A stretch of DNA of 64,000 bases from Natrinema marinum (GTDB lineage Archaea > Halobacteriota > Halobacteria > Halobacteriales > Natrialbaceae): NCBI RefSeq assembly GCF_024296685.1, contig NZ_CP100763.1:3348001-3412000 (forward strand), in the 5' to 3' direction. Positions 48,573-64,000 of this stretch are shown here, piece by piece. Under the pieces are notes generated by a model that saw nothing but the letters and a program-made list of their open reading frames with translations, did no database searches and was not told where the DNA came from. The translations under genes and the position numbers were made by a program. Each line of letters opens with the position of its first letter. The first letter of the stretch is position 1.

Positions 48573-50093
48573 TTAGAGTTCGGGATCGTCGATCTGGATG
48601 TTGATCGTCTTCGTCTGCTGATACTCCTCGAGCGTCTCTTTCGCACACTCCCGACCGATTCCGGACCGTTTGTATCCGCCGAACGGCGTCCCCGGAACCA
48701 GACGGCCGTACTGGTTTACCCAGACCGTGCCGGCTCGGATATCGTCCGCAGCGGCGTGGGCGAGCGAGAGGTTCGTCGTCGCCACCCCCGCGGCCAGGCC
48801 GAAGTCGATGTCGTTCGCGATGGCAATCGCTTCGTCGTAGTCGGAAAACGTGAGCACGGATGCCACCGGGCCGAAGATTTCCTCCTGTGCGATCCGCATG
48901 TCGTTCGTGACGTCGTCGAAGATGGTCGGTTCCACATACCAGCCGGCGAGTTCGTCATCGAGCGTATCTGTTCCGCCGCCACGGACCACCGTCGCACCTT
49001 CGCGCCGGCCGAGTTCGATGTACTCGTTGACCTTCTCGAACTGTTGTTTCGACGCGAGTGGCCCGGTCGTGGTCTCCTCTCGAAGCGGATCGCCGACGGT
49101 CCGTGCGGTTGCCTCGGCCTCGAATAGGTCCATAAACTCGTCGTGGACGTCTTCGTGGACCAGTGTTCGGGAGAAAGCCTCACACGACTGACCCGTGTTG
49201 TAGAAAACGCCCTCGGCGGCGATCGAAGCCGCCTTTTCCAGGTCCGCGTCCGGGAAGACGATGAACGGCGATTTCCCTCCGAGCTCGAGCGTCACGGGGG
49301 TGATTCCCTCGGCGGCGGCTTTCATCACCGTTTCACCGGTCGCATCCTCGCCGGTAAACGAGAGCTTGGAAACGCCCTCGTGACGCGTCAGCGGAGCGCC
49401 GACCTCGTCGCCGAAGCCGTGGACGACGTTGAGTACGCCGGCCGGGAGGACACCCTCGGAGAGCTGGGCGATCCGCGTCGCCGAAAGCGGCGTCTGCTCT
49501 GCGGGTTTCAACACGACGGTGTTCCCCGCCGCGAGCGCCGGGCCGAGCTTCCACGCCGTGAGTATGAGGGGATAGTTCCAGGGAACGATGAGTCCGGCGA
49601 CGCCGTAGGGCTCGCGTTTCGTGAACGCGTGGACGTCGTCGGCGACCGGGATCTGGTGGCCCTGTTCGCCCCGGACGACGTGCGCGTAGTACTCGATGTA
49701 ATCGAGTGCCTTACCCACTTCGTACGTCGCGTTCGCGATCGGTTTGCCCGCGTCGAGACTCTCGAGCAGGGCCAACTCTTCGCTGTTCGCCCGGAGGACC
49801 GACGCCCACTCGAGGATGGCGTCCGATCGCTCGTCGGCAGTCATCGATCCCCACGTGCCGTCGGATGCCGCCTCGGCCGCATCGACGGCCGCGTCGACAT
49901 CGGCCGCAGCACAGCGCGGGACGGTCGTGATCGGGTCGTCGACTGCGGGCGTACGCGTCTCGAAGCGTCGGCCGGTATCGGACGGAACCGACGCGCCGTC
50001 GATCCAGGCGTCGAACTGAACGTCCGCTGTCGCCTCGTCGATCGCTCGTTCGTGATTCCGTTGGAGCGTGTCGGTGAAGCCGTCGGTCGTCAT
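48573..50093 (-). CDS. NAD(P)-dependent aldehyde dehydrogenase
   Basis: 506-residue aldehyde dehydrogenase oxidising an aldehyde to the acid. The general base is E270 in LELGGKSP, the nucleophile is C304 in GQSCEAFSR, and the cofactor segment PWNYPLILTAWKLGPALAAGN, shown here as PWNYPLILTAWKLGPAL, is intact. The C-terminus has FGGYKRSGIGRECAKETLEEY. It resembles betaine/aminobutyraldehyde dehydrogenases, fitting the amine genes that follow. Next to it, on the same strand, is an Lrp-type regulator. Confidence 0.93.
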   Translation of the reverse strand: MTTDGFTDTLQRNHERAIDEATADVQFDAWIDGASVPSDTGRRFETRTPAVDDPITTVPRCAAADVDAAVDAAEAASDGTWGSMTADERSDAILEWASVLRANSEELALLESLDAGKPIANATYEVGKALDYIEYYAHVVRGEQGHQIPVADDVHAFTKREPYGVAGLIVPWNYPLILTAWKLGPALAAGNTVVLKPAEQTPLSATRIAQLSEGVLPAGVLNVVHGFGDEVGAPLTRHEGVSKLSFTGEDATGETVMKAAAEGITPVTLELGGKSPFIVFPDADLEKAASIAAEGVFYNTGQSCEAFSRTLVHEDVHDEFMDLFEAEATARTVGDPLREETTTGPLASKQQFEKVNEYIELGRREGATVVRGGGTDTLDDELAGWYVEPTIFDDVTNDMRIAQEEIFGPVASVLTFSDYDEAIAIANDIDFGLAAGVATTNLSLAHAAADDIRAGTVWVNQYGRLVPGTPFGGYKRSGIGRECAKETLEEYQQTKTINIQIDDPEL

Positions 50094-50283
50094 CGGTACT
50101 CGGGGACCGACGCGAGAGTCGATACGCGTTCGGTCGGATCGGTTTCCCGTCTATTAATTCGACTTTTCCTTTTTGCCTGGAACATGAGACAATCATAGTG
50201 TGCATAAGTTATAAATTCTTCCAAAATAGTGTGGGCCGATAGGAAGGCATGACGACAGGTTACCGGTGAAAGCGACGGCCGAT

Positions 50284-50778
50284 TCAGTCCTGAAGCGGTT
50301 CCAGGTTATCGAACAGTAACTCGAGATCGAAGTCGTTGAGTGGACGGTTCTCGTCTTTGATCGTCTTGATCGCGAACTTGGAACTCGTCCGATTAATCTC
50401 GTCGATCGCTTCGAACTGTTCGACGATATGTTCGACCATATTTCGGTTCGCCAGTCGGGAGATGACGACGAAGTCCGTGTCGCCCATCGTGAAGTAGACC
50501 TGATTGACGCCGTCGACCTCGCTCAGTCGCTCTCCGACTTCGTTGTGATACCCTTTATCGTAGTCCGCCCAGACCTCGGTAATGACCGTGATATTCAGTC
50601 CGACCTTCTCCATATTCAGGTCGAACAGATCGTTTCTGATCACGTTCTTCTCCTGCAGGTTATCCAGCCGATAGTGGACGGTCGATTTCGGAATATCGGT
50701 TTCCTCGGAGATTTTTTCGGCACTTCCCGTTTCGATCTTCGCAATAGCGTTAAGAATCCGGATATCTTTTCTGTCCAT
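50284..50778 (-). CDS. Lrp/AsnC-family transcriptional regulator
   Basis: 164-residue regulator with an N-terminal winged helix (DIRILNAIAKIETGSAEKIS, IPKSTVHYRLDNLQEKNVI) and a C-terminal RAM-like ligand domain (VYFTMGDTDFVVISR). Archaeal Lrp proteins usually sense amino acids and bind palindromic sites near TATA boxes. It is 190 bases from the aldehyde dehydrogenase start and probably controls it and other genes of the amine cluster. Its own promoter is likely in the AT-rich DNA at 50820-50865. Confidence 0.92.
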   Translation of the reverse strand: MDRKDIRILNAIAKIETGSAEKISEETDIPKSTVHYRLDNLQEKNVIRNDLFDLNMEKVGLNITVITEVWADYDKGYHNEVGERLSEVDGVNQVYFTMGDTDFVVISRLANRNMVEHIVEQFEAIDEINRTSSKFAIKTIKDENRPLNDFDLELLFDNLEPLQD

Positions 50779-51194: not shown

Positions 51195-52202
51195 CTACCG
51201 TTCGGCGTGGGAGTCTGCGACGCCGAGGAGGTCAAACGTCGTTCCGCTCCCGTTTTCGGTCGCGGACTGATACGCGATGCGTGCGGTCGCGACGTCCTGG
51301 ATCGCGAGGCCGGTACTGTCGAAGACGGTGATACCATCGTCGCCCGCTCGGCCCGCTTTCGTTCCGACGACGATCTCGCCGAGAGCGGCGTGAATGTCTT
51401 CGTCAGTGAGCACGCCCGTCGAGTAGGGGACGTTTATCTCGCCGGAGTGAGTCGTCTGGGCGTGATCGTCGATGACCAGCGTGGCCTCGAGGAGCACGTC
51501 GTCGGCGAGCTCCTGTTTTCCCGCAGCGTCAGCACCCATCGCGTTGACGTGCGTGTGGTCGCCGATATCGTCTAACTCGACGATCGGGTCTCTCACGGGC
51601 GTCACCGTCGACAGGACGTCGCAGGACGCGGCATCGCCGACGTCGCCCTCGCGGACGGCGAACCGGTCGTCGAAGTGGTCGGCGAACGCTCGAACCCGAC
51701 TCTCGTCGAGATCGCTGACGACGATCTCCCGGATCGGCCGCACCTCGGCGATCGCTTCGACCTGCGTGTACGACTGGATCCCGGCACCGACGATACCGAG
51801 GCTCGTCGCGTCTTCGACGGCGAGCTCGTCGGTCGCGACTGCCGCCGCGGCGCCGGTCCGTTTCATCGTCAGTTCGGTCCCGTCCATGATGGCGAGCGGG
51901 AGGGCGGTCTCGGGGTCGGAGTAGATCATCGTTCCCATCACCGTCGGCAGGTCGTGCTTCTCGCCGTTATCGGGGTGAACGTTGACCCACTTGATGCCGG
52001 CGGCGTCCCACTCGCCGGCGTCCAGGTAAGCGGGCATGGCACGGAAGTCGCCGTTGTACCGCTCGAGGTCCACGTACGATTTCGGCGGCATCTGGGCCGT
52101 TCCGCGTTCGTACGCGGCGAAGGCCTCTCGAACGGCCGGTACCACGTCCGACATTTGCGCGTTCTCGCTGACGTCCTCGCTGGAAAGCAGACGAACAGAC
52201 AT
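51195..52202 (-). CDS. Ornithine cyclodeaminase / mu-crystallin family protein
   Basis: 335-residue NAD(H)-dependent enzyme. The family's N-terminal region has KSYVDLE and GIKWVNVHPDN with the substrate lysine, MDGTELTMKRTGAAAAVAT is a family marker, and the Rossmann loop is GIVGAGIQSYTQ. Members include ornithine cyclodeaminase, archaeal alanine dehydrogenase and other amino-acid or ketimine reductases, and the sequence alone does not decide. Beside an Lrp regulator and divergent from a class III aminotransferase, it likely handles an amino acid or cyclic imine. Confidence 0.88.
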   Translation of the reverse strand: MSVRLLSSEDVSENAQMSDVVPAVREAFAAYERGTAQMPPKSYVDLERYNGDFRAMPAYLDAGEWDAAGIKWVNVHPDNGEKHDLPTVMGTMIYSDPETALPLAIMDGTELTMKRTGAAAAVATDELAVEDATSLGIVGAGIQSYTQVEAIAEVRPIREIVVSDLDESRVRAFADHFDDRFAVREGDVGDAASCDVLSTVTPVRDPIVELDDIGDHTHVNAMGADAAGKQELADDVLLEATLVIDDHAQTTHSGEINVPYSTGVLTDEDIHAALGEIVVGTKAGRAGDDGITVFDSTGLAIQDVATARIAYQSATENGSGTTFDLLGVADSHAER

Positions 52203-52380
52203 ACCTCAAGACGTATCACATACCGTAATAGTTCGACCCGTCCCGGCAATATCGTCTTATATCTCACATTCGATTATAATATCGGATTCAGTTTAATGCC
52301 GGTCGCCCGGCGGTCGTCGACGGGTCCGTCCGACGCGTCGGTCGATCGGGCCGGTATTCCTCGGTTCGGAGCGCCGGTAA

Positions 52381-52390: not shown

Positions 52391-52415
52391 CATCTACTGT
52401 AATAGGTTGGTTAGA

Positions 52416-53741
52416 ATGAAATCCAATGATTCGGCCATAAAGTTGGACGAGCTCTCAAGCAACATCCCCCACTGGTACGACCCGGAGGGTGATGGAGTCC
52501 CCCTGACCGAGGGATGCGGCGCGACGGTGACCGACGCCGCCGGCGACTCCTACCTCGATTTCGTCTCGTCGCTGTACTGCGTCAACGCTGGTCACGACGA
52601 CCAGCGGATCATCGAGGCGATCACCGATCAGCTCGGACGGATCCCGTACGTCTCCTCGGCGAAGGAAAACGACGCGCGAGCGAGGCTGGCGGACGCGCTG
52701 GCGGACGTGGCACCGGAGCCGCTCACGGACGTAACGTTCTCCGTCTCGGGGAGCGAGGCGAACGAACTGGCGATCCAGATCGCTCGCGAGAGTCAGGACG
52801 CGCCGAAGGTGCTGACTCGATGGCAGTCCTATCACGGGAGTACGTACGGCGCGGCGAGCCTGACCGGCGATCCCGAAACTCGAAACGCCGTTCAATCTCA
52901 CGCGGCGACGACCGGCGGCGTCAAGTTCCTGCCGCCCCTCCCTGACGTGTTCGACGCCGAAGGAGCGGAGCTCGCGGAGAAGGCCGCCGACCACGTCGAG
53001 TTCGTCATCAGGAACGAAGGACCCGATTCGATCGCTGCGATCGTCATCGAGCCCGTCGCGGGATCCAGCGGTGGATTTCCGGCCCCGCCGGGATACTTCG
53101 AACGGCTCCGCGAGCTCTGTGACGAGTACGACATCCTCCTGATCGCCGACGAGGTGATCACCGGGTTCGGTCGCTGCGGGGAGATGTTCGGGATGCAGAC
53201 CGAGGGTGTGGATCCGGACATGATCACGTTCGCGAAGGGCGTCACGAGTTCGTACGTCCCGCTCGGCGGTGTGCTCATGCGGGAGGCGATCGCCGATCGC
53301 GTCCGCGACGGCGGTACCGCGGTCGGGCAGACGTTCGCCGGCCATCCGGTGGCCTGCGCCGCCGGCCTCGCCGCGCTCGAGGCGTACGAGGACGGCCTCA
53401 TCGACAACGTCCAGTCCCTGGCGCCCGTCCTGCGGGAGGAACTCGAGGCCCTCGCGGAACGCCACGATGTCGTCGCCGAGGTCCGCGGTCGAGGGTTCCT
53501 CTGGGGGGTCGTCGTCGAGGACCCCGAAACCGGGGAGCCGTTCGCGAACGCGTGGGTCGACGACGACGCCGAGAACCCGGTCGAGGATGTCGCCGAGGCG
53601 GCGCGGGATGCGGGGCTCCTCGTCGGCGTCGGCCGGCCGAACTTCCAACTGCTCGTCGCGCCGCCGCTCTGTATCGACGAATCCGACATCTACGACGCGG
53701 TCGAGACGCTCGACGAGGCGTTCACTGCCGTCTTCGAGTAA
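52416..53741 (+). CDS. Class III (PLP) aminotransferase
   Basis: 441-residue fold-type I aminotransferase of class III. PLP-binding residues are visible: SGSEANELA for phosphate, ADEVITGFGRCG with the ring-nitrogen Asp, and the Schiff-base lysine K274 in ITFAKGVTSSYVPLGG. Resemblance is to omega-amino acid/polyamine transaminases (pyruvate- or 2-oxoglutarate-dependent). The start follows a clear TATA box; the longer frame upstream overlaps the ornithine-cyclodeaminase-like gene in antisense. It could take the amino group of a polyamine or beta/omega-amino acid to give an aldehyde for the dehydrogenase at 48573. Confidence 0.93.
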   Translation: MKSNDSAIKLDELSSNIPHWYDPEGDGVPLTEGCGATVTDAAGDSYLDFVSSLYCVNAGHDDQRIIEAITDQLGRIPYVSSAKENDARARLADALADVAPEPLTDVTFSVSGSEANELAIQIARESQDAPKVLTRWQSYHGSTYGAASLTGDPETRNAVQSHAATTGGVKFLPPLPDVFDAEGAELAEKAADHVEFVIRNEGPDSIAAIVIEPVAGSSGGFPAPPGYFERLRELCDEYDILLIADEVITGFGRCGEMFGMQTEGVDPDMITFAKGVTSSYVPLGGVLMREAIADRVRDGGTAVGQTFAGHPVACAAGLAALEAYEDGLIDNVQSLAPVLREELEALAERHDVVAEVRGRGFLWGVVVEDPETGEPFANAWVDDDAENPVEDVAEAARDAGLLVGVGRPNFQLLVAPPLCIDESDIYDAVETLDEAFTAVFE

Positions 53742-53772: not shown

Positions 53773-54402
53773 CTATCGGTGACAGTACGCGGCGAAGTTC
53801 TCGAGCACCGCCGTCGCGTTGCACTCGTCGAACGAGTGATCGCCGTCGCTCCAGTCGCTGGGACGATCGCGAACGCGCGTCGTGAACTCGGGGTGGAACT
53901 GGACCGTCCAGATCGGCGCGTCGGCGTGGCGAGTACAGAAGTACTCGTTGTACTCGGTTTCGGCGATGACCTCCATTCCCGATCCGGGCTCGACGACCAG
54001 ATCGGAGTGGAGCACGGGAACGATCGGCTCGACCCCGGCGAGGACGGGGTCGTCCGCGTCGACGCTCACCATTTCGACGAACGTGGCTCGGCGCCGGTCC
54101 TCGACGACTTCGCCGCCGAGCGCGGCGTTGATCAATTGGTGGCCGAAGCAGACGCCGAGCAGCGGCAGTTCTTGGTCGCGACCCGTCCGAACGAGCTCCA
54201 TCTGCGTGTCGAACCACGGATATCCCTCCTCGTAGACGCTGGCGGTACTTCCGCTGATAATGACGCCGTCGTACTCCTCGAGCGGTGGGTGATCGCGATC
54301 CTCCGCGTACACGTGATAGTCGCTTTCGGGGGTGAAGTGTTCGATCTCCGGACCGAGATAGCGATACTCCGGTCTGACTTCGTCGTCGAGGACGAGTATC
54401 AT
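53773..54402 (-). CDS. Class I glutamine amidotransferase-like hydrolase
   Basis: 209-residue GATase1 domain protein. The nucleophilic Cys is C85 in GVCFGHQL and the His/Glu pair is H170 and E172 in QFHPE. It stands alone, not fused to a synthetase, like the GMP-synthase-like amidotransferases that hydrolyse gamma-glutamyl bonds. It is divergently transcribed from the glutamine-synthetase-like ligase, with 159 bases between starts. That arrangement suggests a PuuD-like role, freeing glutamate from a gamma-glutamylated intermediate, though it is not the same family as PuuD. The start MILVLDDEVRP is favoured over a GC-poor extension. Confidence 0.85.
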   Translation of the reverse strand: MILVLDDEVRPEYRYLGPEIEHFTPESDYHVYAEDRDHPPLEEYDGVIISGSTASVYEEGYPWFDTQMELVRTGRDQELPLLGVCFGHQLINAALGGEVVEDRRRATFVEMVSVDADDPVLAGVEPIVPVLHSDLVVEPGSGMEVIAETEYNEYFCTRHADAPIWTVQFHPEFTTRVRDRPSDWSDGDHSFDECNATAVLENFAAYCHR

Positions 54403-54561
54403 CAACGCTCGGTACTGACCCGAGAACAATAAATTATAGTACCTCTACCGCAATCTCCATTCAGACGGTGCCACACCCTCAATGAGAATATCTACCACAC
54501 AGCAATCGATCCGTGAGGGGCCGAACCGCGGGGGACGGATCCGCGAGGAGGCGATGCTCGA

Positions 54562-55869
54562 ATGACCGACGCGACCGATCGGATGATCGAAGCGGTCGAG
54601 GACCCCGCGATCGACCACGTCTTCATCGAGTTCGCCGATGTCAACGGCATCTCTCGTTCGAAGCAGCTCACCGCCGACACCTTCCTCGAGAAGTGGGCCG
54701 ACGGGTTCACGATGAACCTCGTGATGTTGGCCCAGACGCCGCGCAATCACGTCCCGGAGGGCTCCGGACTCGGCGCGGAGATCGGACACAGCGACGGGAT
54801 CGTTCACCCGATCCCGGAGACGACGACGCGGCTGCCCTGGCGCGAGAACGCCGTCCGGGTCCTGTGTACGTTCACCCACGAGGGCGAGCGGCTGGCGAGT
54901 TCGCCGCGGGCGGCCCTGGAGTCGGTGCTCGCGGCCAATGACTTCGGGTTCGACTTCTACGCCGGGAGCGAGCTCGAGTTCTACCTCCTCGAGGAGGGTT
55001 CCGGGAACGAGTATGTCCCCGCGACCGACGGCAACCACGAGTGCGTCTCGTGGGCGACCGAGGAGGTCTCCGACTTCTACGACCGACTCGCCGGGTGGGC
55101 CGGCGACTACGGCATCGACCTCACCGCGCTCCACCACGAGCACGGTGCCGGCCAGCTCGAAGTGCTATTCGACTACGGCCGACCGCTCGAACAGGCGGAC
55201 ACGACCTTCGACTTCAAGCGGCTCGTCAAACAGGTCGGCCGCAGCTTCGATCAGTGGCCGACGTTCATGGCCAAGCCCTTCGCCGACCGGCCGGGCAGCG
55301 GCTATCACCTCCACGTGAGCGCGTTCGACGACGGGGAGAACGCCTTCGAGGCCGACACGGGCGATACGCTCTCCGAGCGGGGCCGGCACTTCGTCGGCGG
55401 CCTGATGGAACACGCCGACGCGCTGACCGCGCTCGGCACACCGAACATTAACGGATTCAAGCGGTTCGAACCGAGTTCGTTCGTCCCCTACACCGCCTCG
55501 TGGGGGTACGACAACCGGATGACCGCGGTCCGCGTCCCGTTGGGGGAGCCGCGTCTGGAGGCGCGGATCGCCAGCGCCGACGCCAACCCCTATCTGGTCA
55601 TCGCCGGGACGATCGCCGCGGGCCTCGACGGGCTCCGGCGCGAGCTGGAGCCGCCGGCGCCGACCGACGGCGACCCGACTGGGGATCGCCCGGAGCTCCC
55701 GCGCTCGCCCGAGCTCGCCCTGCGCGCGCTCGAGGCGGACGACGCGCTCGTCGATCTCCTCGGCGAGGATGTCGTGCGCATGTTCGCGGCCTCCAAGCGG
55801 CGCGAGCTGCAGGCGTTTCGGGATCACGTCACCGACTGGGAGCGCGACCAGTACGTGGAGACGATTTGA
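54562..55869 (+). CDS. Glutamine-synthetase-like gamma-glutamyl-amine ligase
   Basis: 435-residue GS-fold ligase. The metal/ATP site segments are present: GSELEFYLLEE, GAGQLEVLFDY, SGYHLHVSAF and the C-terminal NINGFKRFEP then YDNRMTAVRVP in place of the canonical NPxxR motifs. The N-terminal domain is short and the adenylylation tyrosine region of true GlnA is not seen. It belongs with GlnA3/GlnA4/PuuA-type proteins that join glutamate to polyamines or ethanolamine rather than ammonia. A purine-rich GAGGAGG about ten bases before the ATG is a likely ribosome-binding site, unusual in this window. Confidence 0.85.
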   Translation: MTDATDRMIEAVEDPAIDHVFIEFADVNGISRSKQLTADTFLEKWADGFTMNLVMLAQTPRNHVPEGSGLGAEIGHSDGIVHPIPETTTRLPWRENAVRVLCTFTHEGERLASSPRAALESVLAANDFGFDFYAGSELEFYLLEEGSGNEYVPATDGNHECVSWATEEVSDFYDRLAGWAGDYGIDLTALHHEHGAGQLEVLFDYGRPLEQADTTFDFKRLVKQVGRSFDQWPTFMAKPFADRPGSGYHLHVSAFDDGENAFEADTGDTLSERGRHFVGGLMEHADALTALGTPNINGFKRFEPSSFVPYTASWGYDNRMTAVRVPLGEPRLEARIASADANPYLVIAGTIAAGLDGLRRELEPPAPTDGDPTGDRPELPRSPELALRALEADDALVDLLGEDVVRMFAASKRRELQAFRDHVTDWERDQYVETI

Positions 55870-56119: not shown

Positions 56120-58456
56120 ATGACGGACGCGTCTGAGCTGTTAGACCCGTTTATTGTACAGCCCCCGACGTTAGACGAACAGCGGGCGGCACGGATCGCC
56201 GAACGCGAGTTCGGTAAGCGAGGGACGGTGACGGAACTCGGCGGGGAGCGAGATCAGAACTTCCGAATCGATGCCGACGACGGCGAGACGTACGTACTGA
56301 AGATCTCCAGTCCGGCCGACGACGTTTCGTCGCTCGAGCTGCAAGCCGAGGCCCTGCGGCACGTGTCTCGGACCGATCCCGACCTCCCAGTGATGGAGAT
56401 CGTTCCGACCATCGAAGGCTCGCCCTGGACGTCCGTCGACGACGACGAGACGTATCTCGTGCGGATGTTTACGCACGTGCCCGGGCGAACCGTTTCGGGG
56501 ACGGAACTCGACGGGGAGGCCCTGTACGAGTACGGAGCGACGGCGGCGAGACTCGGAGAGGCCCTTCGCGGCTTCTTCCACCCCGACGCGGACTACGACA
56601 TACTGTGGGACCTGCGACACACCGCCGAACTTCGATCGCTACTCGACAGTGTCACCGACGAAGAGCGACGCGCTCTCGCCGGCCGCATCCTCGATCGGTT
56701 CGAAGATCGGGTCGAACCGGTTTTCGATTCGCTCCGCGCGCAAGTGATCCACAACGACCTCACGCTCGACAACGTCCTGCTGGACGAGCGCGATCGGGTC
56801 AGCGGGATCGTCGATTTCGGCGATCTCACCCATACGGCCCTCGTGAGCGACCTCGCGATGGCGATCGCGAGCGTAATGTATCGCCGCGAAGACCCGATCG
56901 AAGCGGCCCAGGCGGTGATCCGGGGTTACGTCAGCGTCACGCCGCTCGAGGACGAGGAGGCCGGCCTGCTGGCGGACCTCGTCGCGGCCCGGCACCTCAC
57001 CTGGGGAGTCACGGTCGCGTGGCGGCTCGACGAACATCCCGACAAGACCGACGAACACAGCGTCGCCGGCGTCGACGACGGATGGGAACTGTTGCGATCG
57101 CTCGACGAACTGGGGTTGGACACCGTCGGTCGACGCCTGCGAACCGCCGCGCTGGCCGGTAACGTTCCGTACTCTCGAACGGACACGGCCGATTTGGAGT
57201 CTCGGCGACGCCGGGTTCTCGGACCGTCGCCCCTCTCGTACCGCGACCCCGTCCACTTCGTCGGCGGCGAAGGGGTGTGGTTGTACGATTCGTCCGGCCG
57301 TCGCTACCTCGACGCGTACAACAACGTACAGGTCGTAGGTCACGCGAACCCCGCAGTCGCGGACGCCATCGGCGGACAGGCGCGCAAACTGGCCACCAAC
57401 ACTCGGTACCTGCACGAGGCACCAGTCGAGTTAGCCGATCGCATTCTGGCAACGATGCCCGACGAACTGGACCGAGTCCTGTTCGTCAACTCCGGTAGCG
57501 AGGCGACCGACACCGCCTGGCGGCTGGCTACGGCGGCCACCGGAAACGACGGCGCGATCGTTTCGGAGAACGCGTATCACGGTATCACCGAGGCGACGAC
57601 GGCGCAATCGCCCACGATTTGGCCCGAGAGTTTCCGCCCGGACCACGTCGAGACGGTCCGGCCGCCGGTCGACGAACTCCCCCGCCGGACGCGCGCGGAT
57701 CGAGACCCGGTCGAAGATATAAACGAGTCGCTCGAGACTCTCGAGAAACGAGGGCGGGGAACTGCGGCGTTCGTGTTCGACTCGCTGTTCACCAGCGACG
57801 GAATCTTCCCTCCCGAGGGAGGCCGATTGGGATCGATGATCGATCGTGTCCGCGAGGCCGGAGGTGTCGTCGTCGCGGACGAGGTACAGGCTGGATACGG
57901 ACGAAGCGGCTCGAATATGTGGGGGTTCCAGAGTGCAGGTGTCATCCCCGATATCGTCACGATAGGGAAACCGATGGGCAACGGACATCCCGTCGCGGCC
58001 GTCGTGACGCGGTCGGACATCGCGTCGACCCTGTACGACCGGACGGGCTTTTTCAGTACGTTCGGCGGGAATCCAGTGTCCTGTGTGGCTGCGCTGGCGG
58101 TGTTGGACGAGATCGAGGAGAGGGACCTGCTGACTCACGCCGCCGAGGTCGGCGAGTACCTTCGTGACGGGCTGCGGGAACTGGCCGTCGAACACGAACG
58201 CATCGGCGAGGTCCGTCAACGGGGACTGATGATCGGTGTCGAACTGGTCAGAGACCGAGCGACCCGGGAGCCGGCACCGAACGAGGCGACGGCAGTAGTC
58301 AACGGGCTCCGTCAGCGTCGGGTGCTCATCGGCTCGACCGGCAAAGAGGGTAACGTGCTGAAGATCCGCCCGCCGCTGGTGTTCGAAAAAGGACACGCGG
58401 ACCGCCTCTTGGAAGCGTTAGACGACGCACTCTCGGAACGGAGCGCCGGGAACTAA
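56120..58456 (+). CDS. APH-type kinase fused to a class III aminotransferase/phospholyase
   Basis: 778 residues in two modules. Residues ~20-330 are an aminoglycoside/choline kinase-like phosphotransferase with the catalytic loop VIHNDLTLDN (H211, D213) and metal-binding DFGD near 232. Residues ~360-778 are a class III PLP enzyme with SGSEATDTAW, ADEVQAGYGRSG and Schiff-base lysine K617 in IGKPMGNGHPVAAV. That last motif matches phosphoethanolamine/phosphohydroxylysine phospholyases (AGXT2L type). The fusion predicts that an amino alcohol is phosphorylated and then cleaved to aldehyde, ammonia and phosphate in one protein. Substrate (ethanolamine, hydroxylysine or other) is inference. A TATA-like CTATATGAAA lies ~35 bases upstream. 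Confidence 0.88.
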   Translation: MTDASELLDPFIVQPPTLDEQRAARIAEREFGKRGTVTELGGERDQNFRIDADDGETYVLKISSPADDVSSLELQAEALRHVSRTDPDLPVMEIVPTIEGSPWTSVDDDETYLVRMFTHVPGRTVSGTELDGEALYEYGATAARLGEALRGFFHPDADYDILWDLRHTAELRSLLDSVTDEERRALAGRILDRFEDRVEPVFDSLRAQVIHNDLTLDNVLLDERDRVSGIVDFGDLTHTALVSDLAMAIASVMYRREDPIEAAQAVIRGYVSVTPLEDEEAGLLADLVAARHLTWGVTVAWRLDEHPDKTDEHSVAGVDDGWELLRSLDELGLDTVGRRLRTAALAGNVPYSRTDTADLESRRRRVLGPSPLSYRDPVHFVGGEGVWLYDSSGRRYLDAYNNVQVVGHANPAVADAIGGQARKLATNTRYLHEAPVELADRILATMPDELDRVLFVNSGSEATDTAWRLATAATGNDGAIVSENAYHGITEATTAQSPTIWPESFRPDHVETVRPPVDELPRRTRADRDPVEDINESLETLEKRGRGTAAFVFDSLFTSDGIFPPEGGRLGSMIDRVREAGGVVVADEVQAGYGRSGSNMWGFQSAGVIPDIVTIGKPMGNGHPVAAVVTRSDIASTLYDRTGFFSTFGGNPVSCVAALAVLDEIEERDLLTHAAEVGEYLRDGLRELAVEHERIGEVRQRGLMIGVELVRDRATREPAPNEATAVVNGLRQRRVLIGSTGKEGNVLKIRPPLVFEKGHADRLLEALDDALSERSAGN

Positions 58457-58588: not shown

Positions 58589-59932
58589 TTACTGCTTCTC
58601 GGCGAGCAGCGGGGCGACGGATTTGAACGCCTCGAGGTGCTCGTCGATGTGTTCTTCCTCGTGTTGGACGCTGATGGTCCACTGCTGGGAGGCGTCGTGC
58701 GGGTGCGGCAGAACGCCCTGGTTGAGCATCGCGAACCAGTAGTTCTCGTGGAACTCGGTGTCGACGTGCTCGAGGTAATCGCGATAGTTCTCGATCCGCT
58801 CCTCGGTAAAGTGGACGATTCCCTGCGAGTTGACGTTCTCGACGTGGCCGTCGATCCCGGCGTCGGCCATGATATCCTCGTAGCCCCCGACGAGTTTCTC
58901 GCCGAGCGCGTTGACGTGCTGATAGGCGTCGTCGGTGAGCACGTCGCGGAGGACGGTCGTGACCGCCTGCAACACGAGCGGGCTCCCGTTGTACGTTCCG
59001 TAGTGGGCCGCGCCGTCCTCGATCGTTCGCATGACTTCCTCGCGACCGCCGAAAGCGCCGACGGGGAAGTTGCCGCCGATACTCTTGGCCATCGCGACGA
59101 GGTCGGGTTCGACGTCGTAGTACTCGGCCGCGCCGCCGGGGGCGACCTTGACGCCGGTCTTCACTTCGTCGAAGATGTAGGCGATGCCGTACTCGTCACA
59201 GAGCTCGCGGAGCCCCTGCAGGAACTCCTTGTACGGTTGCGTCACGCCGACGTTCATCACGATCGGTTCGACGATGAGGGCACCGATCTCGTTCATGTGC
59301 TCGCGCATGATCGCTTCGACCGACTCGAGGTCGTTGAACGGGGCGATCTCGACCGTGTCGGCGATCGCTTCGGGGATCCCCTCGCTCTCGATCAGCTTCG
59401 TCGGACGTTCGGGATGGCCCAGTTTCCCTTTCGGCGTCGACTTGCTGATTAGGACGGCGTCGTGGACGCCGTGATACGATCCTTCGATCTTCAGAAGCTT
59501 GTCCTTGCCCGTGTACGCCCGCGCGATTCGAATGGCGTGCATCGTGCTCTCCGTCCCGCTGTTCGTAAACCGGACGAGGTCGACGGGGTCCCACCGCTTC
59601 TTGAGTTCCTCGGCGGCCTCCGCAAGGAGGTCGTGCGGATGGGTGAAGAGCGTCCCCTCGTCGAGTTGGGTCTTGACCGCGTCAGTGACGGCGGGATGCG
59701 CGTGTCCGACCATCCCCGCTCCGTTGTTCATGTCGAAATCGAGATAGGAATTGCCGTCGACGTCGTGCAGGTGGACGCCCTCCGCCCGGTCGACCACGAA
59801 CGGATGCGGATCCCACGCGCGGTACGTGCTGGCCACGCCGGCGGGGACGTGGTTCCGAATTTCTTCGAACCGTTCCTTGCTCTTGGGGGTGCGATCGACG
59901 TATTCTGACTCGAGACTGTCCCAGATCTCCAT
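58589..59932 (-). CDS. Class III aminotransferase, glutamate-1-semialdehyde aminomutase-like
   Basis: 447-residue PLP enzyme. TNSGTESTMHAIRIARA, FDEVKTG with D255, and the Schiff-base lysine K283 in MAKSIGGNFPVGAFGG place it close to glutamate-1-semialdehyde 2,1-aminomutases and related beta-amino acid transaminases. Unlike HemL it is not next to heme genes, and it lies between the kinase fusion and the polyamine-type ABC permeases, so a catabolic transaminase is more likely. It is convergent with the kinase fusion and downstream of the permeases. Confidence 0.9.
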   Translation of the reverse strand: MEIWDSLESEYVDRTPKSKERFEEIRNHVPAGVASTYRAWDPHPFVVDRAEGVHLHDVDGNSYLDFDMNNGAGMVGHAHPAVTDAVKTQLDEGTLFTHPHDLLAEAAEELKKRWDPVDLVRFTNSGTESTMHAIRIARAYTGKDKLLKIEGSYHGVHDAVLISKSTPKGKLGHPERPTKLIESEGIPEAIADTVEIAPFNDLESVEAIMREHMNEIGALIVEPIVMNVGVTQPYKEFLQGLRELCDEYGIAYIFDEVKTGVKVAPGGAAEYYDVEPDLVAMAKSIGGNFPVGAFGGREEVMRTIEDGAAHYGTYNGSPLVLQAVTTVLRDVLTDDAYQHVNALGEKLVGGYEDIMADAGIDGHVENVNSQGIVHFTEERIENYRDYLEHVDTEFHENYWFAMLNQGVLPHPHDASQQWTISVQHEEEHIDEHLEAFKSVAPLLAEKQ

Positions 59933-59970: not shown

Positions 59971-59992
59971 CTACATTCAAAAGGATGCCATT

Positions 59993-60061: not shown

Positions 60062-60898
60062 TCAGCGCCGGCGGATGAGTTCGCTCGCGACGATGAGCCC
60101 GATACTGAACAGCAACACCATCGTGCTGATTGCGTTGATGACGGGGTCGGTCCCGTGCTGGACCTTCGACCAGATGTAGATGGGGAGCGTGTTCTGGACG
60201 CCGCTGGTGAAGAACGCGATCAGGAAGTCGTCGAACGACAGGGTGAAGGCGAACAGCGCACCGCTGACGATACCGGGCATCAGGATCGGGAGCGTCACCC
60301 GGCGATACGTCTGCCACTTGCTGGCACCGAGGTCGCGAGCGGCCTCCTCGAGTTCGGGGTCGAAGCCGCGAAGGCGCGCGCTGACGGTGATCAAGACGAA
60401 CGGCGTGACGAACACGAGCTGGCCGATCATCACCGTCACTAGCGACGTGTTGATGTTCAGGAAGTTGAACCAGAGCAGGAGAGCGATCCCGAGGATGAGT
60501 CCGGGAATCGTCATGGGCGCGACTACGAGCGCGCGGTAGAACCCCTTACCCCGGAAATCGGCCCGCACGAGGGCGATCGCACCGAGCGTTCCGAGGGTGG
60601 TCGCTCCGAACGTCACGACGGTACCGACGTAGAGACTGTTCATCGTCGCGCGGATGAGGCGCGTGTCGCTCACCATCTCCGCGTACCACTGCATCGTGAA
60701 CCCGTCCCAGGGGACCGACGAGAACGTCCCCTTCTCGAAGGAGAAGAGGATCAACACGGCGATCGGCGCGTAGAGGAACGTGAACACGAGCACGGTCCAG
60801 ATCGGGAGCCAGTACCGCTCCGCGACCGCGAGGATCGAACCGATCGAGTTGGTCACGGTCTCGCTGCCAGCGTTGGTCTCAGACGTTTTCGTACTCAT
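60062..60898 (-). CDS. potC: Spermidine/putrescine ABC permease, PotC-type
   Basis: 278-residue permease with about six transmembrane helices. The EAA loop EEAARDLGASKWQTYRRVTLP contacts the ATPase and is quoted here as EEAARDLGASKWQTYRR. The first helix region has VLFTFLYAPIAVLILFSF-type hydrophobic sequence, and the N-terminus is a polar cytoplasmic tail. It lies two bases downstream of the PotB-type gene, so the pair forms one transcript. Substrate assignment to polyamines rests on family similarity and the neighbouring amine enzymes. Confidence 0.9.
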   Translation of the reverse strand: MSTKTSETNAGSETVTNSIGSILAVAERYWLPIWTVLVFTFLYAPIAVLILFSFEKGTFSSVPWDGFTMQWYAEMVSDTRLIRATMNSLYVGTVVTFGATTLGTLGAIALVRADFRGKGFYRALVVAPMTIPGLILGIALLLWFNFLNINTSLVTVMIGQLVFVTPFVLITVSARLRGFDPELEEAARDLGASKWQTYRRVTLPILMPGIVSGALFAFTLSFDDFLIAFFTSGVQNTLPIYIWSKVQHGTDPVINAISTMVLLFSIGLIVASELIRRR

Positions 60899-60900
60899 CG

Positions 60901-61797
60901 TTAGAACATCTCCTCCACGTCAGTGTAGCCCATGAGCGACCAGAGGACGCCGGCGACGATCAGCATGAGGACGCTCCCCAGCGCCGCGCCGACAGGCCAG
61001 TCGCCGCCGATACCGAACGCGTACCCGATCCGCGTTCCGACGAACAGTTCGCCGCCGCCGATCATCGCCGGGACGATGTACGCGCCCATGCTGAAGATAA
61101 AGACGAAAATGATCCCGCCGACGAGCCCCGGGATCGATAGCGGGAGGACGATCCGACGGAACACCGCCAGTCGCGACGCGCCGAGATCGTACGCGGCCTC
61201 GATCAGGCTCTCGTCGATCTTCTCGAGGCTGGAGTACAGCGGCAGGACCATGAAGGGCAGCCAGAGGTACGTCAGCCCGAGCCAGATGGAGAACTTCGTG
61301 TTGATGATCCACGAGATCGGCTCGTTGAGCACGCCTATCCAGATGAGCATGCTGTTCAGGATGCCCTTCGATCCGAGGATGATCTGCCAGCCGTAGATTC
61401 GGACGATATAGTTCGTCCAGAACGGGATCATGACCAGAATTAAGAGGAGGTTCTGGTACTCCCCGCCACGTCTGGCGATGTAGTAGGCGAACGGGTACGC
61501 GACGATTACTGCGGTGACCGTCGTCAGCACCGCCATCGTCGTCGTATTGATGAACGCGGCGCGGTTGGCCGGACCGGTGAACACTCCGATGTAGTTCTCG
61601 AGCGTGTAGGCCTGTTGCAGCGCGAAGTCCTCCATCCGCATCGTCGCGATGAAGAACATGATCGCGAGCGGACCGATGAAGAACAACAGCTCGAGGAACA
61701 AGATCGGCCCTCCCGTCGCGAGGAACCCGTTCGATCCCCTGACTCGGTTGACTATAGTCCGAAATAGACTATCATTTTCCCTTGAATCGGCTACCAT
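60901..61797 (-). CDS. potB: Spermidine/putrescine ABC permease, PotB-type
   Basis: About 298 residues and six transmembrane helices. The EAA loop IEAAYDLGASRLAVFRRIVLP, given here as IEAAYDLGASRLAVFRR, and the early segment GPLAIMFFIATMRMEDF are PotB-like. The ATG at 61797 is preferred: it lies about 26 bases from a TATA-like AATATAGC at 61822-61829, while the upstream GTG at 61821 would overlap it. The gene is divergent from the binding protein at 62075. The 250-base gap between them must hold both promoters. Confidence 0.9.
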   Translation of the reverse strand: MVADSRENDSLFRTIVNRVRGSNGFLATGGPILFLELLFFIGPLAIMFFIATMRMEDFALQQAYTLENYIGVFTGPANRAAFINTTTMAVLTTVTAVIVAYPFAYYIARRGGEYQNLLLILVMIPFWTNYIVRIYGWQIILGSKGILNSMLIWIGVLNEPISWIINTKFSIWLGLTYLWLPFMVLPLYSSLEKIDESLIEAAYDLGASRLAVFRRIVLPLSIPGLVGGIIFVFIFSMGAYIVPAMIGGGELFVGTRIGYAFGIGGDWPVGAALGSVLMLIVAGVLWSLMGYTDVEEMF

Positions 61798-62035
61798 ATC
61801 CGCTATGTTAAAACGGCGCACAATATAGCTTGTGATTCACTCACCGAGCCCGTCGCTTCGATGTGGTCGTTCTCCGGTTCTCAGGGCGGATTTACCCAGA
61901 AGCGCGTACACTGTCAGATTATATCACCCTGTATTCCGAACGAACGGCGACGGTCTCTTGTCTCAGATTCAGTATTATAACTAATAGCTGGATGGTGTCA
62001 GATCACAACTCTGTGCGTTGGATAGTGTGGGAAAG

Positions 62036-62045
62036 TATTATATAT
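62036..62045 (+). promoter_or_regulatory. TATA box of the PotD operon
   Basis: TATTATATAT lies 30 bases before the ATG at 62075. The facing promoter for the PotB operon (AATATAGC, 61822-61829, minus strand) is in the same intergenic region. Confidence 0.5.
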
Positions 62046-62074
62046 CCCTATGAGACAACGTAACACGAGCCGTA

Positions 62075-63238
62075 ATGAGAAAATTCGAAGACATAACGGG
62101 CGACGACAACGGACGCGCACGTATCGGTGCATCGCGACGAACCTTCCTTCAGTCGGCCGGCATCGCCGGAACGGCGGCGATGGCGGGCTGTCTCGGAGAC
62201 GCGTTGGGCGGCGGGACGACTCTCAACGTGCTGACGTGGGAGGGGTACGGTACCGACACGATCGTCAACGAGTTCGAGTCCGAGCACGACGCTACGGTCA
62301 ACATCAGTCTCCTCGCCAGCGACCCGGAAGGGTTCAATATCCTCAAGAGCGGCGGGACGTCCGATTACGACCTGCTCACAGTGAACAACACCTGGGCGGC
62401 CCGCCACGCCGAGGCCGGGACGATCGAATCGCTCAATCCCGACGACTTCCCGGAGATGGACAACTTCCTCGAGAAGTTCCAGTGGCCGTTCGAGTCGTTC
62501 GCGTACGAAGACGAGATGTACGCGCTACCGACTCGGTGGGGCTGGGACACGCTGACGGTCAATACGAACGTAGTTCCCGAAGAGCATTACTCCTCCTACG
62601 AGGTCCTCTGGACCGGCGGTCCGAACGGCGAGTACGAGGGCAAGATGGGTATCATGGACTGGCCGACGTGGAACATTCCGAAGATCGCGCAGTCGCTGGG
62701 TTACCCGCCCTTCGAGCAGAACGAGGAACAACTCGCCGACATCAAGGAGCGACTCGTCGAGATGTTCAACAACATGGGAGCGATCTACAGCGGGACCAGC
62801 GCGATCCGACAGGCGTTCCTGCAGGAAGACATCGTCATTTCCCCAGTCGGGAATTTCACGATGTCCGAACTCCGCGCTCAGGGCAACGACTGGGTCAACG
62901 TCGTCCTCCCCGAACAGGGCGGAATGGGGTGGACCGAGGGAATGTGCATGGTCAAGGATCCCGCCAACCCCGACCTCGCGGTCGACTTCATGAACAAGGT
63001 GATTTCCCCGAAGGGACAGTACAGCGTCGCCTGGGAGCCCGCAGCCAAGAGTCCGCCGGTGAACACCGCCTCGTTCGATCAGTTCGACGCGGACCAGCAA
63101 GAGGCGCTCATGTTCAGCGAGGACGGGTTCGACGCCGCGCAGACAATCTCGGAACAGACGACACCGTACGAATTCTCGGAGAATACGGACGCGTGGACGG
63201 ACATGTGGGAAGACGCGAAAGCGCAAAGCGACGTGTAA
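62075..63238 (+). CDS. potD: Polyamine-type ABC solute-binding lipoprotein, PotD-like
   Basis: 387-residue binding protein. The N-terminus has a Tat motif (ASRRTFLQSAGIAGTAA) and a lipobox MAGC, indicating export and lipid anchoring. The mature sequence (LNVLTWEGYG, YDLLTVNN, YALPTRWGWDTL) follows PotD/PotF-type proteins that bind spermidine, putrescine and related cations. The stop TAA is followed directly by the ATG of the ATPase gene, with no spacer. Ligand specificity is not certain from the residues visible. Confidence 0.9.
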   Translation: MRKFEDITGDDNGRARIGASRRTFLQSAGIAGTAAMAGCLGDALGGGTTLNVLTWEGYGTDTIVNEFESEHDATVNISLLASDPEGFNILKSGGTSDYDLLTVNNTWAARHAEAGTIESLNPDDFPEMDNFLEKFQWPFESFAYEDEMYALPTRWGWDTLTVNTNVVPEEHYSSYEVLWTGGPNGEYEGKMGIMDWPTWNIPKIAQSLGYPPFEQNEEQLADIKERLVEMFNNMGAIYSGTSAIRQAFLQEDIVISPVGNFTMSELRAQGNDWVNVVLPEQGGMGWTEGMCMVKDPANPDLAVDFMNKVISPKGQYSVAWEPAAKSPPVNTASFDQFDADQQEALMFSEDGFDAAQTISEQTTPYEFSENTDAWTDMWEDAKAQSDV

Positions 63239-64000
63239 ATGGAAAGCGATACCACGACATCCTCGAAAAGCGAGTCTATGATAGAAGAAACAGCAGTCGA
63301 CAACACGGGAACGGCGACCAGCGAACGTGGCGAGTCGGATGCGACTCGATCCGGGACCGTAGAGCTCGACGGATTGCGGAAGGAGTTCGGGGACGTAACC
63401 GCCGTCGACGGGGTCGATCTGCAGATCAACCCGGGCGAGTTCCTCACGCTGCTCGGCCCGTCCGGCTGTGGGAAGTCGACCACGCTTCGGATGATCAGCG
63501 GTCTCGAGACGCCGACCTCGGGCGACGTGTTCATCAGCGGTCAGCGAGTCACCAGCGCGGCCGCGAACAAGCGCAACACCAGTATGGTGTTTCAGGAGTG
63601 GGCGCTCTTCCCGCACATGACCGTCGAGGAGAACATCTCGTTCGGACTCGAGATGGACGGCGTCCCAGCCGACGAGCGGGAGGAGAAAGTCACCGAAGCG
63701 CTGGAGCTCGTCGAACTCCCGGGCTATCAGGATCGGAAGGCGACGGAGCTGTCGGGCGGGCAGAAACAGCGGATCGCGATGGCGCGTGCGATCGTCCGCG
63801 AACCCGACGTCTTGCTGCTCGACGAACCCCTTGCGAGTCTCGACCGCAAACTCCGACAGCACATGCAGGTCGAACTCAAGAAGATTCAGGAAGAGTTGGG
63901 GATCACGTTCATCTACGTCACGCACGATCAGGAGGAAGCGCTGACGATGTCGGATCGGATCGCCGTCCTGAACGACGGCCAGATCGAGCAGGTCGGGCCG
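63239..64000 (+). CDS. potA: Polyamine-type ABC ATPase, PotA-like, 3' end outside window
   Basis: 254 codons visible; the frame is open at the right edge. After a ~40-residue polar N-terminal extension, Walker A GPSGCGKST is at residues 73-81, the signature LSGGQKQRI at 171-179, Walker B VLLLDEPLASLD near 191, and the H-loop YVTHDQEEA follows. A second in-frame ATG at 63278 would shorten the extension by 13 residues. It directly abuts the PotD gene, so PotD and PotA are one operon divergent from PotBC. The missing part should be the TOBE domain. Confidence 0.93.
   Translation, partial: MESDTTTSSKSESMIEETAVDNTGTATSERGESDATRSGTVELDGLRKEFGDVTAVDGVDLQINPGEFLTLLGPSGCGKSTTLRMISGLETPTSGDVFISGQRVTSAAANKRNTSMVFQEWALFPHMTVEENISFGLEMDGVPADEREEKVTEALELVELPGYQDRKATELSGGQKQRIAMARAIVREPDVLLLDEPLASLDRKLRQHMQVELKKIQEELGITFIYVTHDQEEALTMSDRIAVLNDGQIEQVGP

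What the first reader, a model, noticed from the sequence alone, without database searches (positions are those of the whole stretch)
48573..64000. Apparent amine-utilisation locus with kinase/phospholyase and gamma-glutamyl branches
In 15 kb there are an aldehyde dehydrogenase, an Lrp regulator, an ornithine-cyclodeaminase-family enzyme, two single-domain class III aminotransferases, a kinase-aminotransferase fusion, a GS-like ligase, a lone class I glutamine amidotransferase and a PotABCD-type transporter. Individually these families are known. The combination suggests two ways of opening an imported amine, by gamma-glutamylation (as in the Puu pathway) and by phosphorylation followed by phospholyase cleavage. 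The amine oxidase (PuuB) of the bacterial route is not in the window, so an aminotransferase may replace it. The set as a unit may be an undescribed haloarchaeal pathway.
Basis: partly seen in the sequence, partly recalled or inferred. Interest (0 to 1): 0.75.

Follow-up and report, generated by a model that had tools for sequence, protein, structure and literature searches.

The report
Haloarchaeal polyamine-breakdown gene island
A salt-loving archaeon carries a gene cluster that very likely imports and breaks down polyamines by a route already known in bacteria and in one relative, with one unusual addition: a fused kinase-lyase enzyme of unknown substrate, usually encoded right beside the enzyme that tags amines with glutamate.

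Summary
The genes are real and the grouping is conserved. The locus runs 4.5 kb past the window (third class III aminotransferase, agmatinase-family enzyme, second aldehyde dehydrogenase). The GS-like protein keeps the metal/ATP/glutamate residues of glutamine synthetase but has H for Y179 and F for E327, as expected of a gamma-glutamyl-amine ligase; such an enzyme is published in Haloferax mediterranei. The "ornithine cyclodeaminase" is closest to archaeal alanine dehydrogenase and probably recycles pyruvate for the neighbouring omega-aminotransferase. Of 22 ligase-bearing haloarchaeal loci (window included), 19 have the amidotransferase, 17 PotA, 16 AT1 or AT2; the closest known system is Pseudomonas spuABCDEFGH/Puu. 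A flavin oxidase is in 7 of 22, not here. The kinase-aminotransferase fusion is rare (12 of 391 genomes). Its C-terminal half is phospholyase-like (its two best solved matches are phospholyases). In its main clade it lies directly downstream of one ligase clade in 8 of 9 loci; the two clades coincide in 7 of 8 genomes (Fisher p 2e-13). A four-genome side clade stands alone. New is the ligase/kinase-phospholyase pairing; its substrate is unknown.

The parts
48573..50093 (-). aldehyde dehydrogenase (ALDH1)
   Evidence: Pfam Aldedh 562 bits; a 75% identical gene lies in a GS/Pot/agmatinase locus of Haloarcula sp. JP-L23 and a 61% one in G162; not seen at 55% or more in the other loci (in L047 the stretch ends about 1.4 kb beyond Lrp, so it was not tested there)
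50284..50778 (-). Lrp/AsnC-type regulator
   Evidence: Pfam AsnC_trans_reg and HTH_24; an Lrp gene at 50% identity or more is present in 12 of 22 GS-bearing loci
51195..52202 (-). OCD-family NAD(P) enzyme, most like archaeal alanine dehydrogenase
   Evidence: best NCBIfam ala_DH_arch 357 bits, below its 409 cut-off; best PDB 1omo alanine dehydrogenase 285 bits, next kind 218
52416..53741 (+). class III omega-aminotransferase AT1
   Evidence: Pfam Aminotran_3; best PDB taurine:2-oxoglutarate aminotransferase 6jix 247 bits, then other class III aminotransferases, among them an amine transaminase; present in 9 of 9 loci that hold the OCD gene
53773..54405 (-). class I glutamine amidotransferase, candidate gamma-glutamyl hydrolase
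   Evidence: Pfam GATase 83 bits and Peptidase_C26 45 bits; GVCFGHQ and HPE motifs; in 19 of 22 GS-bearing loci
54562..55869 (+). GS-like gamma-glutamyl-amine ligase (GS_a)
   Evidence: Pfam Gln-synt_C; catalytic residues kept, Y179 to H and E327 to F
56120..58456 (+). fused APH-type kinase (about residues 38-271) and phospholyase-type class III PLP module (about 356-772)
   Evidence: full length in 12 of 391 genomes of the class
58589..59932 (-). class III aminotransferase AT2, GSAM/GntE-like
   Evidence: NCBIfam GntE 403 of 525 bits; PDB GSAM 269 bits; at 60% identity or more in 12 of 22 GS-bearing loci
60062..60898 (-). ABC permease PotC-type
   Evidence: Pfam BPD_transp_1
60901..61821 (-). 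ABC permease PotB-type
   Evidence: Pfam BPD_transp_1
62075..63238 (+). solute-binding protein PotD-type
   Evidence: Pfam SBP_bac_6/SBP_bac_1; 78% identical relative in Natronosalvus halobius annotated PotD/PotF family
63239..64000 (+). ABC ATPase PotA-type, continues to 64411; followed outside the window by AT3 (64427-65749), agmatinase-family (65742-66749), ALDH2 (66955-68493)

Best explanation
A polyamine-utilisation island. PotABCD imports a cationic amine (candidates: agmatine, cadaverine, putrescine). The agmatinase-family enzyme outside the window would open a guanidino amine. The GS-like ligase caps one amine with gamma-glutamate. Aminotransferases AT1 and/or AT2 turn the free end into an aldehyde, and the OCD-family alanine dehydrogenase regenerates pyruvate from alanine. 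Aldehyde dehydrogenases make the acid, the class I amidotransferase removes glutamate, and AT3 with an ALDH feeds GABA-type acids to succinate. The kinase-phospholyase fusion is a parallel entry for an amino-alcohol taken up with the polyamines: the kinase half phosphorylates the hydroxyl, the PLP half eliminates phosphate and ammonia, and the aldehyde joins the same dehydrogenases. Shown: gene content, residue patterns, conserved linkage. Inferred: every reaction, the substrates, and the order of steps.
For: Family and residue evidence for each gene. Linkage: Lrp-OCD-AT1-GAT-GS-fusion-PotCB-PotDA in the window genome, Natrinema gelatinilyticum, Natronosalvus halobius and three Halopenitus genomes. 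Across 22 GS-bearing loci (window included): amidotransferase in 19, PotA in 17, AT1 or AT2 in 16, agmatinase-family in 9. GS clade and main fusion clade each in 8 of 391 genomes, both in 7 (Fisher p 2.4e-13); tandem on one strand, GS upstream, in 8 of the 9 main-clade loci. Phospholyase module: PDB hits 354 and 304 bits to phospholyases against 199 for the next kind; NNV and [T/S]RY in 24 of 24 modules aligned (window's included) and 0 of 3 ordinary aminotransferases. H. mediterranei GlnA-2 is a glutamate-putrescine ligase (PMC8394153). Agmatine and cadaverine are the main polyamines of Haloferax volcanii (PMC5178350).
Against: No expression or enzyme data. The fusion is found without these partners in 4 of 12 genomes, once beside a different ligase (Natribaculum luteum), and the GS clade once without the fusion (G278). 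None of 12 bacterial kinase and/or phospholyase loci (17-21 kb each) showed a GS-like gene. The amidotransferase has no BLAST hit to E. coli PuuD and its relatives only 23-26%. The agmatinase-family gene is outside the window and not found in the Halopenitus stretches fetched; its nearest solved structures include other guanidino hydrolases. A flavin oxidase sits in the cluster in N. gelatinilyticum, and a distant one exists in the window's genome. Nothing identifies the amino-alcohol.
Confidence: 0.55

Rival explanations
1. Ligase and fusion act in series on one hydroxylated diamine (for example 2-hydroxyputrescine): the ligase caps the far amine, the kinase phosphorylates the hydroxyl next to the free amine, and the phospholyase yields the gamma-glutamyl amino-aldehyde that the Puu-type dehydrogenase uses, so that no oxidase or transaminase is needed.
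For: Tandem ligase-fusion order on one strand in 8 of 9 main-clade loci, gaps 66-820 bases; the pair stands without the other cluster genes in Halorientalis salina contig C11; in Natribaculum luteum the fusion sits beside a different, 52% identical ligase.
Against: The four-genome side clade of the fusion has no ligase nearby. The ligase clade shows no clear active-site difference from ligases without the fusion: 7 columns are fixed in its 9 sequences and absent from the 17 others, none of them among the residues checked as catalytic. Hydroxy-diamines are not known to me as common in brines (recalled).
Confidence: 0.12
2. The ligase-fusion pair is an ethanolamine (or 1-amino-2-propanol) system: the ligase is a gamma-glutamylethanolamide synthetase like Streptomyces GlnA4 and the fusion a kinase plus ethanolamine-phosphate phospholyase, two routes for one small amine.
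For: GlnA4 precedent (PMC9397018, passages); the two phospholyases nearest in the PDB act on phosphoethanolamine (5g4i recalled; 6tor by its title).
Against: The module differs from 5g4i and 6tor at the fifth position of NNVxH: V in 11 and I in 1 of 12 haloarchaeal fusions; what that residue does was not tested. PotABCD, agmatinase-family and GABA-transaminase-like genes point to polyamines.
Confidence: 0.15
3. The fusion is a passenger: partly plasmid-borne catabolic islands are mosaics and it serves an unrelated substrate such as hydroxylysine.
For: Fusion without partners in 4 of 12 genomes; four copies on records titled plasmid; patchy distribution over family labels; the kinase is annotated as hydroxylysine kinase in one bacterial operon (PMC13275390, one passage).
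Against: Repeated tandem with one ligase clade across family labels f1, f3 and f4, p 2.4e-13 (genomes are not phylogenetically independent).
Confidence: 0.12
4. The C-terminal half is an ordinary aminotransferase and the kinase half is regulatory or acts elsewhere.
For: Pfam calls it only Aminotran_3; no assay exists.
Against: Sequence places it with phospholyases by a wide margin and it has the motifs they share.
Confidence: 0.06

Closest known systems
Pseudomonas aeruginosa spuABCDEFGH polyamine uptake and utilisation operon
   Same: gamma-glutamylation genes, a putrescine:pyruvate aminotransferase and a polyamine ABC transporter in one cluster (PMC10606097, passages; that spuA is an amidotransferase and spuB GS-like is recalled)
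   Different: haloarchaeal; adds alanine dehydrogenase-like, agmatinase-family and kinase-phospholyase genes; several divergently oriented genes; spu protein sequences were not compared here
E. coli Puu pathway (PuuABCDE)
   Same: ligase (31% to PuuA), ALDHs (41-43% to PuuC), GABA-transaminase-like AT3 (36% to PuuE)
   Different: no flavin oxidase in the cluster; amidotransferase without a hit to PuuD (23-26% for two relatives); ABC import instead of PuuP
Haloferax mediterranei GlnA-2 (HFX_1688) glutamate-putrescine ligase
   Same: haloarchaeal GS-like protein with ammonium-site residues changed, transporter genes beside it (PMC8394153)
   Different: its sequence was not compared here; no kinase-phospholyase is reported beside it in the sections read
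Class III phospholyases (human ETNPPL 6tor; 5g4i, from Arthrobacter as recalled) and bacterial kinase + phospholyase genes
   Same: PLP module 354 and 304 bits; kinase next to phospholyase on bacterial plasmids
   Different: kinase and PLP module fused directly; the one bacterial fusion examined is 1017 aa with an M23 domain between them, the window's is 778 aa without; paired with a GS-like ligase

Membership tests
gamma-glutamyl-amine ligase (PuuA/GlnA-2 type) | GS catalytic domain with metal, ATP and glutamate residues kept | tested here: met
   E129, E131, E212, E220, H269, H271, R321, R339, R344, R355, E357, R359 identical to E. coli GlnA (the roles of these residues are recalled)
gamma-glutamyl-amine ligase (PuuA/GlnA-2 type) | ammonium-site residues of true GS replaced | tested here: met
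   Y179 is H and E327 is F; PuuA has T or N and Y there. D50 is not reliably alignable: N, E
gamma-glutamyl-amine ligase (PuuA/GlnA-2 type) | ATP-dependent glutamylation of an amine | not testable with these tools
   needs an assay
gamma-glutamyl-amine ligase (PuuA/GlnA-2 type) | reaches NCBIfam equivalog cut-off for gamma-glutamylputrescine synthetase | tested here: not met
   242 of 650 bits; so a relative that may work like it, not a curated member
Puu pathway | gamma-glutamylamine flavin oxidase PuuB in the cluster | tested here: not met
   none in the locus. In the genome: E. coli PuuB finds only two short hits; three oxidases of the Natribaculum luteum locus and that of N. gelatinilyticum find one DAO-family protein about 86 kb past the window end at 29-35%
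Puu pathway | amidotransferase of the PuuD (Peptidase_C26, recalled) kind | tested here: inconclusive
   Peptidase_C26 above cut-off (45 of 20.5 bits) but GATase scores higher (83)
spu-type polyamine cluster | GATase, GS-like, class III aminotransferase and Pot transporter clustered | tested here: met
   window map; recurs in related loci
spu-type polyamine cluster | induced by and needed for polyamine use | not testable with these tools
   no expression data
PLP phospholyase | closest to characterised phospholyases among class III enzymes | tested here: met
   354 and 304 bits against 199 for the next kind; motif columns
PLP phospholyase | 1,2-elimination of phosphate and ammonia | not testable with these tools
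   needs an assay
APH-type amino-alcohol/hydroxylysine kinase | intact catalytic HxD...N and DFG motifs | tested here: met
   HNDLTLDN and DFGD in the window protein
APH-type amino-alcohol/hydroxylysine kinase | substrate specificity | not tested
   solved-structure hits are weak (30 bits)
archaeal alanine dehydrogenase (OCD superfamily) | passes curated model cut-off | tested here: not met
   357 of 409 bits; best PDB is alanine dehydrogenase by 66 bits
agmatinase | passes curated agmatinase cut-off and keeps metal-ligand motifs | tested here: met
   177.8 of 174.3 bits for TIGR01230, but 203.7 of 302 for NF002564 agmatinase; GGDH, DAHTD, DIDSVDP; nearest PDB entries span several guanidino hydrolases, so the substrate is open

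The most novel reading that the evidence does not exclude
A two-enzyme relay in which a gamma-glutamyl ligase first caps the distal amine of a hydroxylated diamine and a fused kinase-phospholyase then turns the remaining amino-alcohol end into the gamma-glutamyl aldehyde by phosphorylation and elimination: an oxidase-free and transaminase-free entry into the Puu pathway, in my searches seen only in haloarchaea.
Probability: 0.1. Interest if true: 0.75.

Novelty: new variant of a known kind. Interest (0 to 1): 0.42.

Why it matters
It suggests that gamma-glutamylation polyamine catabolism in haloarchaea comes as modular, partly plasmid-borne islands with interchangeable amine-to-aldehyde steps (flavin oxidase, omega-aminotransferase with alanine dehydrogenase, possibly phospholyase), and it ties a rare kinase-phospholyase fusion of unknown substrate to a specific ligase clade. 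That narrows the substrate search to amines that a ligase and a kinase-phospholyase could share, and it can be tested with two purified proteins.

Tried and rejected
Structure prediction of the fusion from six sequences gave mean pLDDT 43 and was not used; no fold search was run. A regex motif screen missed true motif variants and was replaced by alignment columns. The idea that the ligase beside the fusion has a distinct pocket found no clear support. The idea that the aminotransferase strictly replaces the flavin oxidase was weakened by Natrinema gelatinilyticum and Natronorubrum aibiense, which have both. EutBC-type ectoine use was considered because of the OCD gene and rejected: the EutC model scores 165 bits, alanine dehydrogenase 357. 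PbfA (phosphonate lyase) was rejected for the PLP module: 208 of 525 bits. Side-clade fusion neighbourhoods gave no partner above the cut-offs. A first Pfam scan of the distant flavoprotein was made on the wrong strand and found nothing (tenth protein; seen); the right strand is DAO family.

Paper searches for a kinase-phospholyase in haloarchaea, a GS-kinase pair or related routes listed none that describes them; searches returned no paper at all, and the library holds open-licence papers only.

Rows not in the 26-locus matrix: the second Natrialba magadii locus L084 (only a GS found in 20 kb); GS hits in G262 and G338 and Halomarina sp. PSR21, which were not fetched. In that matrix some 100% entries are self-matches of the reference (Natribaculum luteum GS, oxidase, deacetylase; Natronosalvus halobius aldehyde ferredoxin oxidoreductase).
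Full report
Observation. The window lies in one 3.77 Mb contig. Reading past the window end shows that PotA is followed directly by a third class III aminotransferase, an arginase/agmatinase-family enzyme and a second aldehyde dehydrogenase (Pfam and NCBIfam). The locus is about 20 kb, 15 genes from ALDH1 to ALDH2.

Individual enzymes. The GS-like protein (435 aa) is 31% identical to PuuA and, over 286 residues, 30% to GlnA of E. coli. In two alignments (6 sequences, 28 sequences) twelve residues of the GS active site are kept, while Y179 is H (8 of 9 in its clade, F in one; H in 17 of 17 other haloarchaeal cluster ligases) and E327 is F (9 of 9 and 17 of 17). Position D50 aligned differently in the two runs and is not used. 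Haloferax mediterranei GlnA-2, which showed glutamate-putrescine ligase and no GS activity, also lacks E327 and has Y179 replaced, there by alanine (PMC8394153: abstract, first part of Results, and Discussion read). NCBIfam's gamma-glutamylputrescine synthetase model gives 242 bits, far under its 650 cut-off, so the substrate is open.

The OCD-family protein matches the archaeal alanine dehydrogenase model best (357 bits, cut-off 409). Its best solved relatives are 1omo/1vll alanine dehydrogenase (285 bits), then a pyrroline-2-carboxylate reductase (218). AT1 is nearest to a taurine:2-oxoglutarate aminotransferase. OCD gene and AT1 occur together in 9 of 9 OCD-bearing loci. A pyruvate-using omega-aminotransferase with alanine dehydrogenase as recycler is the natural reading; the amino acceptor is inferred (the nearest solved relative uses 2-oxoglutarate). 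AT2 is GSAM/GntE-like. The amidotransferase has GVCFGHQ and HPE motifs. The agmatinase-family protein passes one agmatinase cut-off narrowly (177.8 of 174.3) and misses another (203.7 of 302); its top solved relatives are two proteins named agmatinase 2, then guanidinopropionase and guanidinobutyrase.

The fusion. Residues 38-271 are an APH-type kinase with intact HxD...N and DFG motifs, and 381-771 a class III PLP domain. The PLP half matches the solved phospholyases 5g4i (354 bits) and human ETNPPL 6tor (304 bits); the next kind scores 199. The columns NNV and [T/S]RY are kept in 24 of 24 phospholyase-type modules aligned (window's included) and in 0 of 3 ordinary aminotransferases. The residue after NNVx is H in 5g4i and 6tor but V (11) or I (1) in the 12 haloarchaeal fusions. 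The best NCBIfam models, PRK06148 and PRK06149 (1015 and 972 positions), match in two stretches each; that they are kinase-M23-aminotransferase fusions is recalled, and one such protein, from Pararhizobium, has the M23 domain. The window protein has none. The haloarchaeal fusions separate from all bacterial ones in trees of both halves (support 0.998 and 0.999, FastTree), with a main clade (73-100% identical to the window's) and a side clade (about 60%).

Distribution. Full-length fusions occur in 9 of 242 genomes of the class and, in the larger draw, 12 of 391: 8 main clade, 4 side clade. The GS clade at 84% identity or more occurs in 8 of 391. Seven genomes have both, adjacent in each; Fisher p 2.4e-13, an overstatement because three are of one genus (Halopenitus) and genomes share ancestry. 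The eighth fusion genome, Natribaculum luteum, has a 52% identical ligase 1.2 kb away on the other strand. The eighth GS genome, G278, has the GS near a contig end; the 955 bases beside it hold a fragment of another GS and no start of the fusion, and no fusion was found elsewhere in that assembly. With Natrinema gelatinilyticum, which is not in the sample, 9 main-clade loci were read; in 8 the GS is directly upstream on the same strand, gap 66-820 bases.

Neighbourhoods. 26 loci were scored by tblastn with identity cut-offs that I set per gene. They were chosen because they hold the ligase or the fusion, and the stretches differ in length (about 20 to 35 kb), so the counts describe these loci and are not frequencies in the class. 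Of 22 with a ligase (window included): amidotransferase 19, PotA 17, AT1 or AT2 16, AT2 12, Lrp 12, AT1 10, OCD 9, agmatinase-family 9, fusion 9, flavin oxidase 7. Halopenitus has Lrp-OCD-AT1-GAT-GS-fusion-Pot and no AT2, AT3 or agmatinase above cut-off in the fetched stretches. Three loci (Halorientalis salina contig C22, G079, G280) have Pot, AT2, ligase, amidotransferase, agmatinase-family, AT3 and aldehyde ferredoxin oxidoreductase without OCD/AT1/fusion. Natrialba magadii has ligases with flavin oxidases, a class II deacetylase-family gene and Pot-like ABC genes. Thus a core (ligase, amidotransferase, aminotransferase, Pot) is combined with exchangeable modules. The four side-clade fusions have none of the scored genes above cut-off; weak ABC-transporter matches (31-37%) lie near one of them (L043), and a deoxyhypusine synthase gene about 6 kb from another (Halalkalicoccus jeotgali).

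Flavin oxidase. In N. gelatinilyticum a flavin oxidoreductase frame (L047 5712-6848) lies between AT1 and the amidotransferase; in the window these genes are 31 bases apart. In the window's genome the four haloarchaeal oxidases used as queries find one near-full-length hit, 29-35% identical, DAO family, about 86 kb past the window, plus short partial hits; E. coli PuuB finds only short hits. So the cluster either works without an oxidase or borrows a distant one; that an aminotransferase does the step is inference.

Bacterial relatives. Of 814 plasmid records matching the fusion (40 listed) ten bacterial loci with a kinase were read: kinase and phospholyase are adjacent separate genes in nine (by frames only in L091 and L093) and fused with M23 in one. 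With two phospholyase-only loci that makes 12, of which 3 have a PotA/B/C-like set nearby (Burkholderia, Microvirga, Bosea), 2 a deacetylase-family gene, and none a GS-like gene. The pairing with a ligase therefore looks haloarchaeal within what was examined.

Context from the literature. Pseudomonas spuABCDEFGH combines gamma-glutamylation genes, a putrescine:pyruvate aminotransferase and a polyamine transporter (PMC10606097, passages; PMC9397018, passages). Agmatine and cadaverine are the main polyamines of Haloferax volcanii (PMC5178350, passages including the abstract). Ten early haloarchaeal genomes were said to have arginine decarboxylase and agmatinase (PMC3102087, passages). Ethanolamine-phosphate phospholyase and a close relative were called in 2021 the only documented lyases of that class III type (PMC8154272, passages). 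A bacterial operon of haloacid dehalogenase, 'hydroxylysine kinase', aminotransferase and Lrp is mentioned in PMC13275390 (one passage), the same gene order as in Variovorax. My paper searches listed no account of the haloarchaeal fusion or of the ligase-fusion pair; the library is open-licence only.

Verdict. The cluster is a haloarchaeal variant of the known gamma-glutamylation/aminotransferase polyamine systems. The kinase-phospholyase fusion is a real, rare and non-randomly placed addition whose substrate is unknown. I score interest 0.42: a good experimental lead, not a new kind of system on present evidence.

Noticed in passing
35313-45485: An acyl-CoA/beta-oxidation group (3-hydroxyacyl-CoA dehydrogenase, thiolase, two acyl-CoA dehydrogenases, AMP-binding enzyme) with a DctM-type transporter subunit and an NMT1-like binding protein, which looks like a TAXI-type TRAP transporter (Pfam; the TAXI label is recalled).
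   Followed up: partly
45615-46391: IclR-family regulator beside an acyl-CoA dehydrogenase, between the beta-oxidation group and the amine locus.
   Followed up: no
46497-47258: Rod-determining factor A (RdfA) family protein, 228 bits, between the catabolic groups.
   Followed up: no
L043, L044, L045, L046: Side clade of the kinase-phospholyase fusion (about 60% identical) in four genomes, including Halalkalicoccus jeotgali plasmid 2 and Natronorubrum texcoconense, with none of the scored polyamine-locus genes above cut-off in 20 kb.
   Followed up: partly
L118 1-2263: G278 carries the ligase near a contig end beside a fragment of a second ligase and a frame that reads like a transposase piece (by eye); perhaps a decayed copy of the island.
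   Followed up: partly
L047 5712-6848: Flavin-dependent oxidoreductase frame between AT1 and the amidotransferase in Natrinema gelatinilyticum, missing at the same place in the window.
   Followed up: yes
L035, L036, L037, L041, L042: Near the cluster, three of three Halopenitus genomes have an aldehyde ferredoxin oxidoreductase (81-82% to that of Natronosalvus halobius) and two of three a class II deacetylase-family gene (66-67%): a possible alternative aldehyde-oxidising step.
   Followed up: partly
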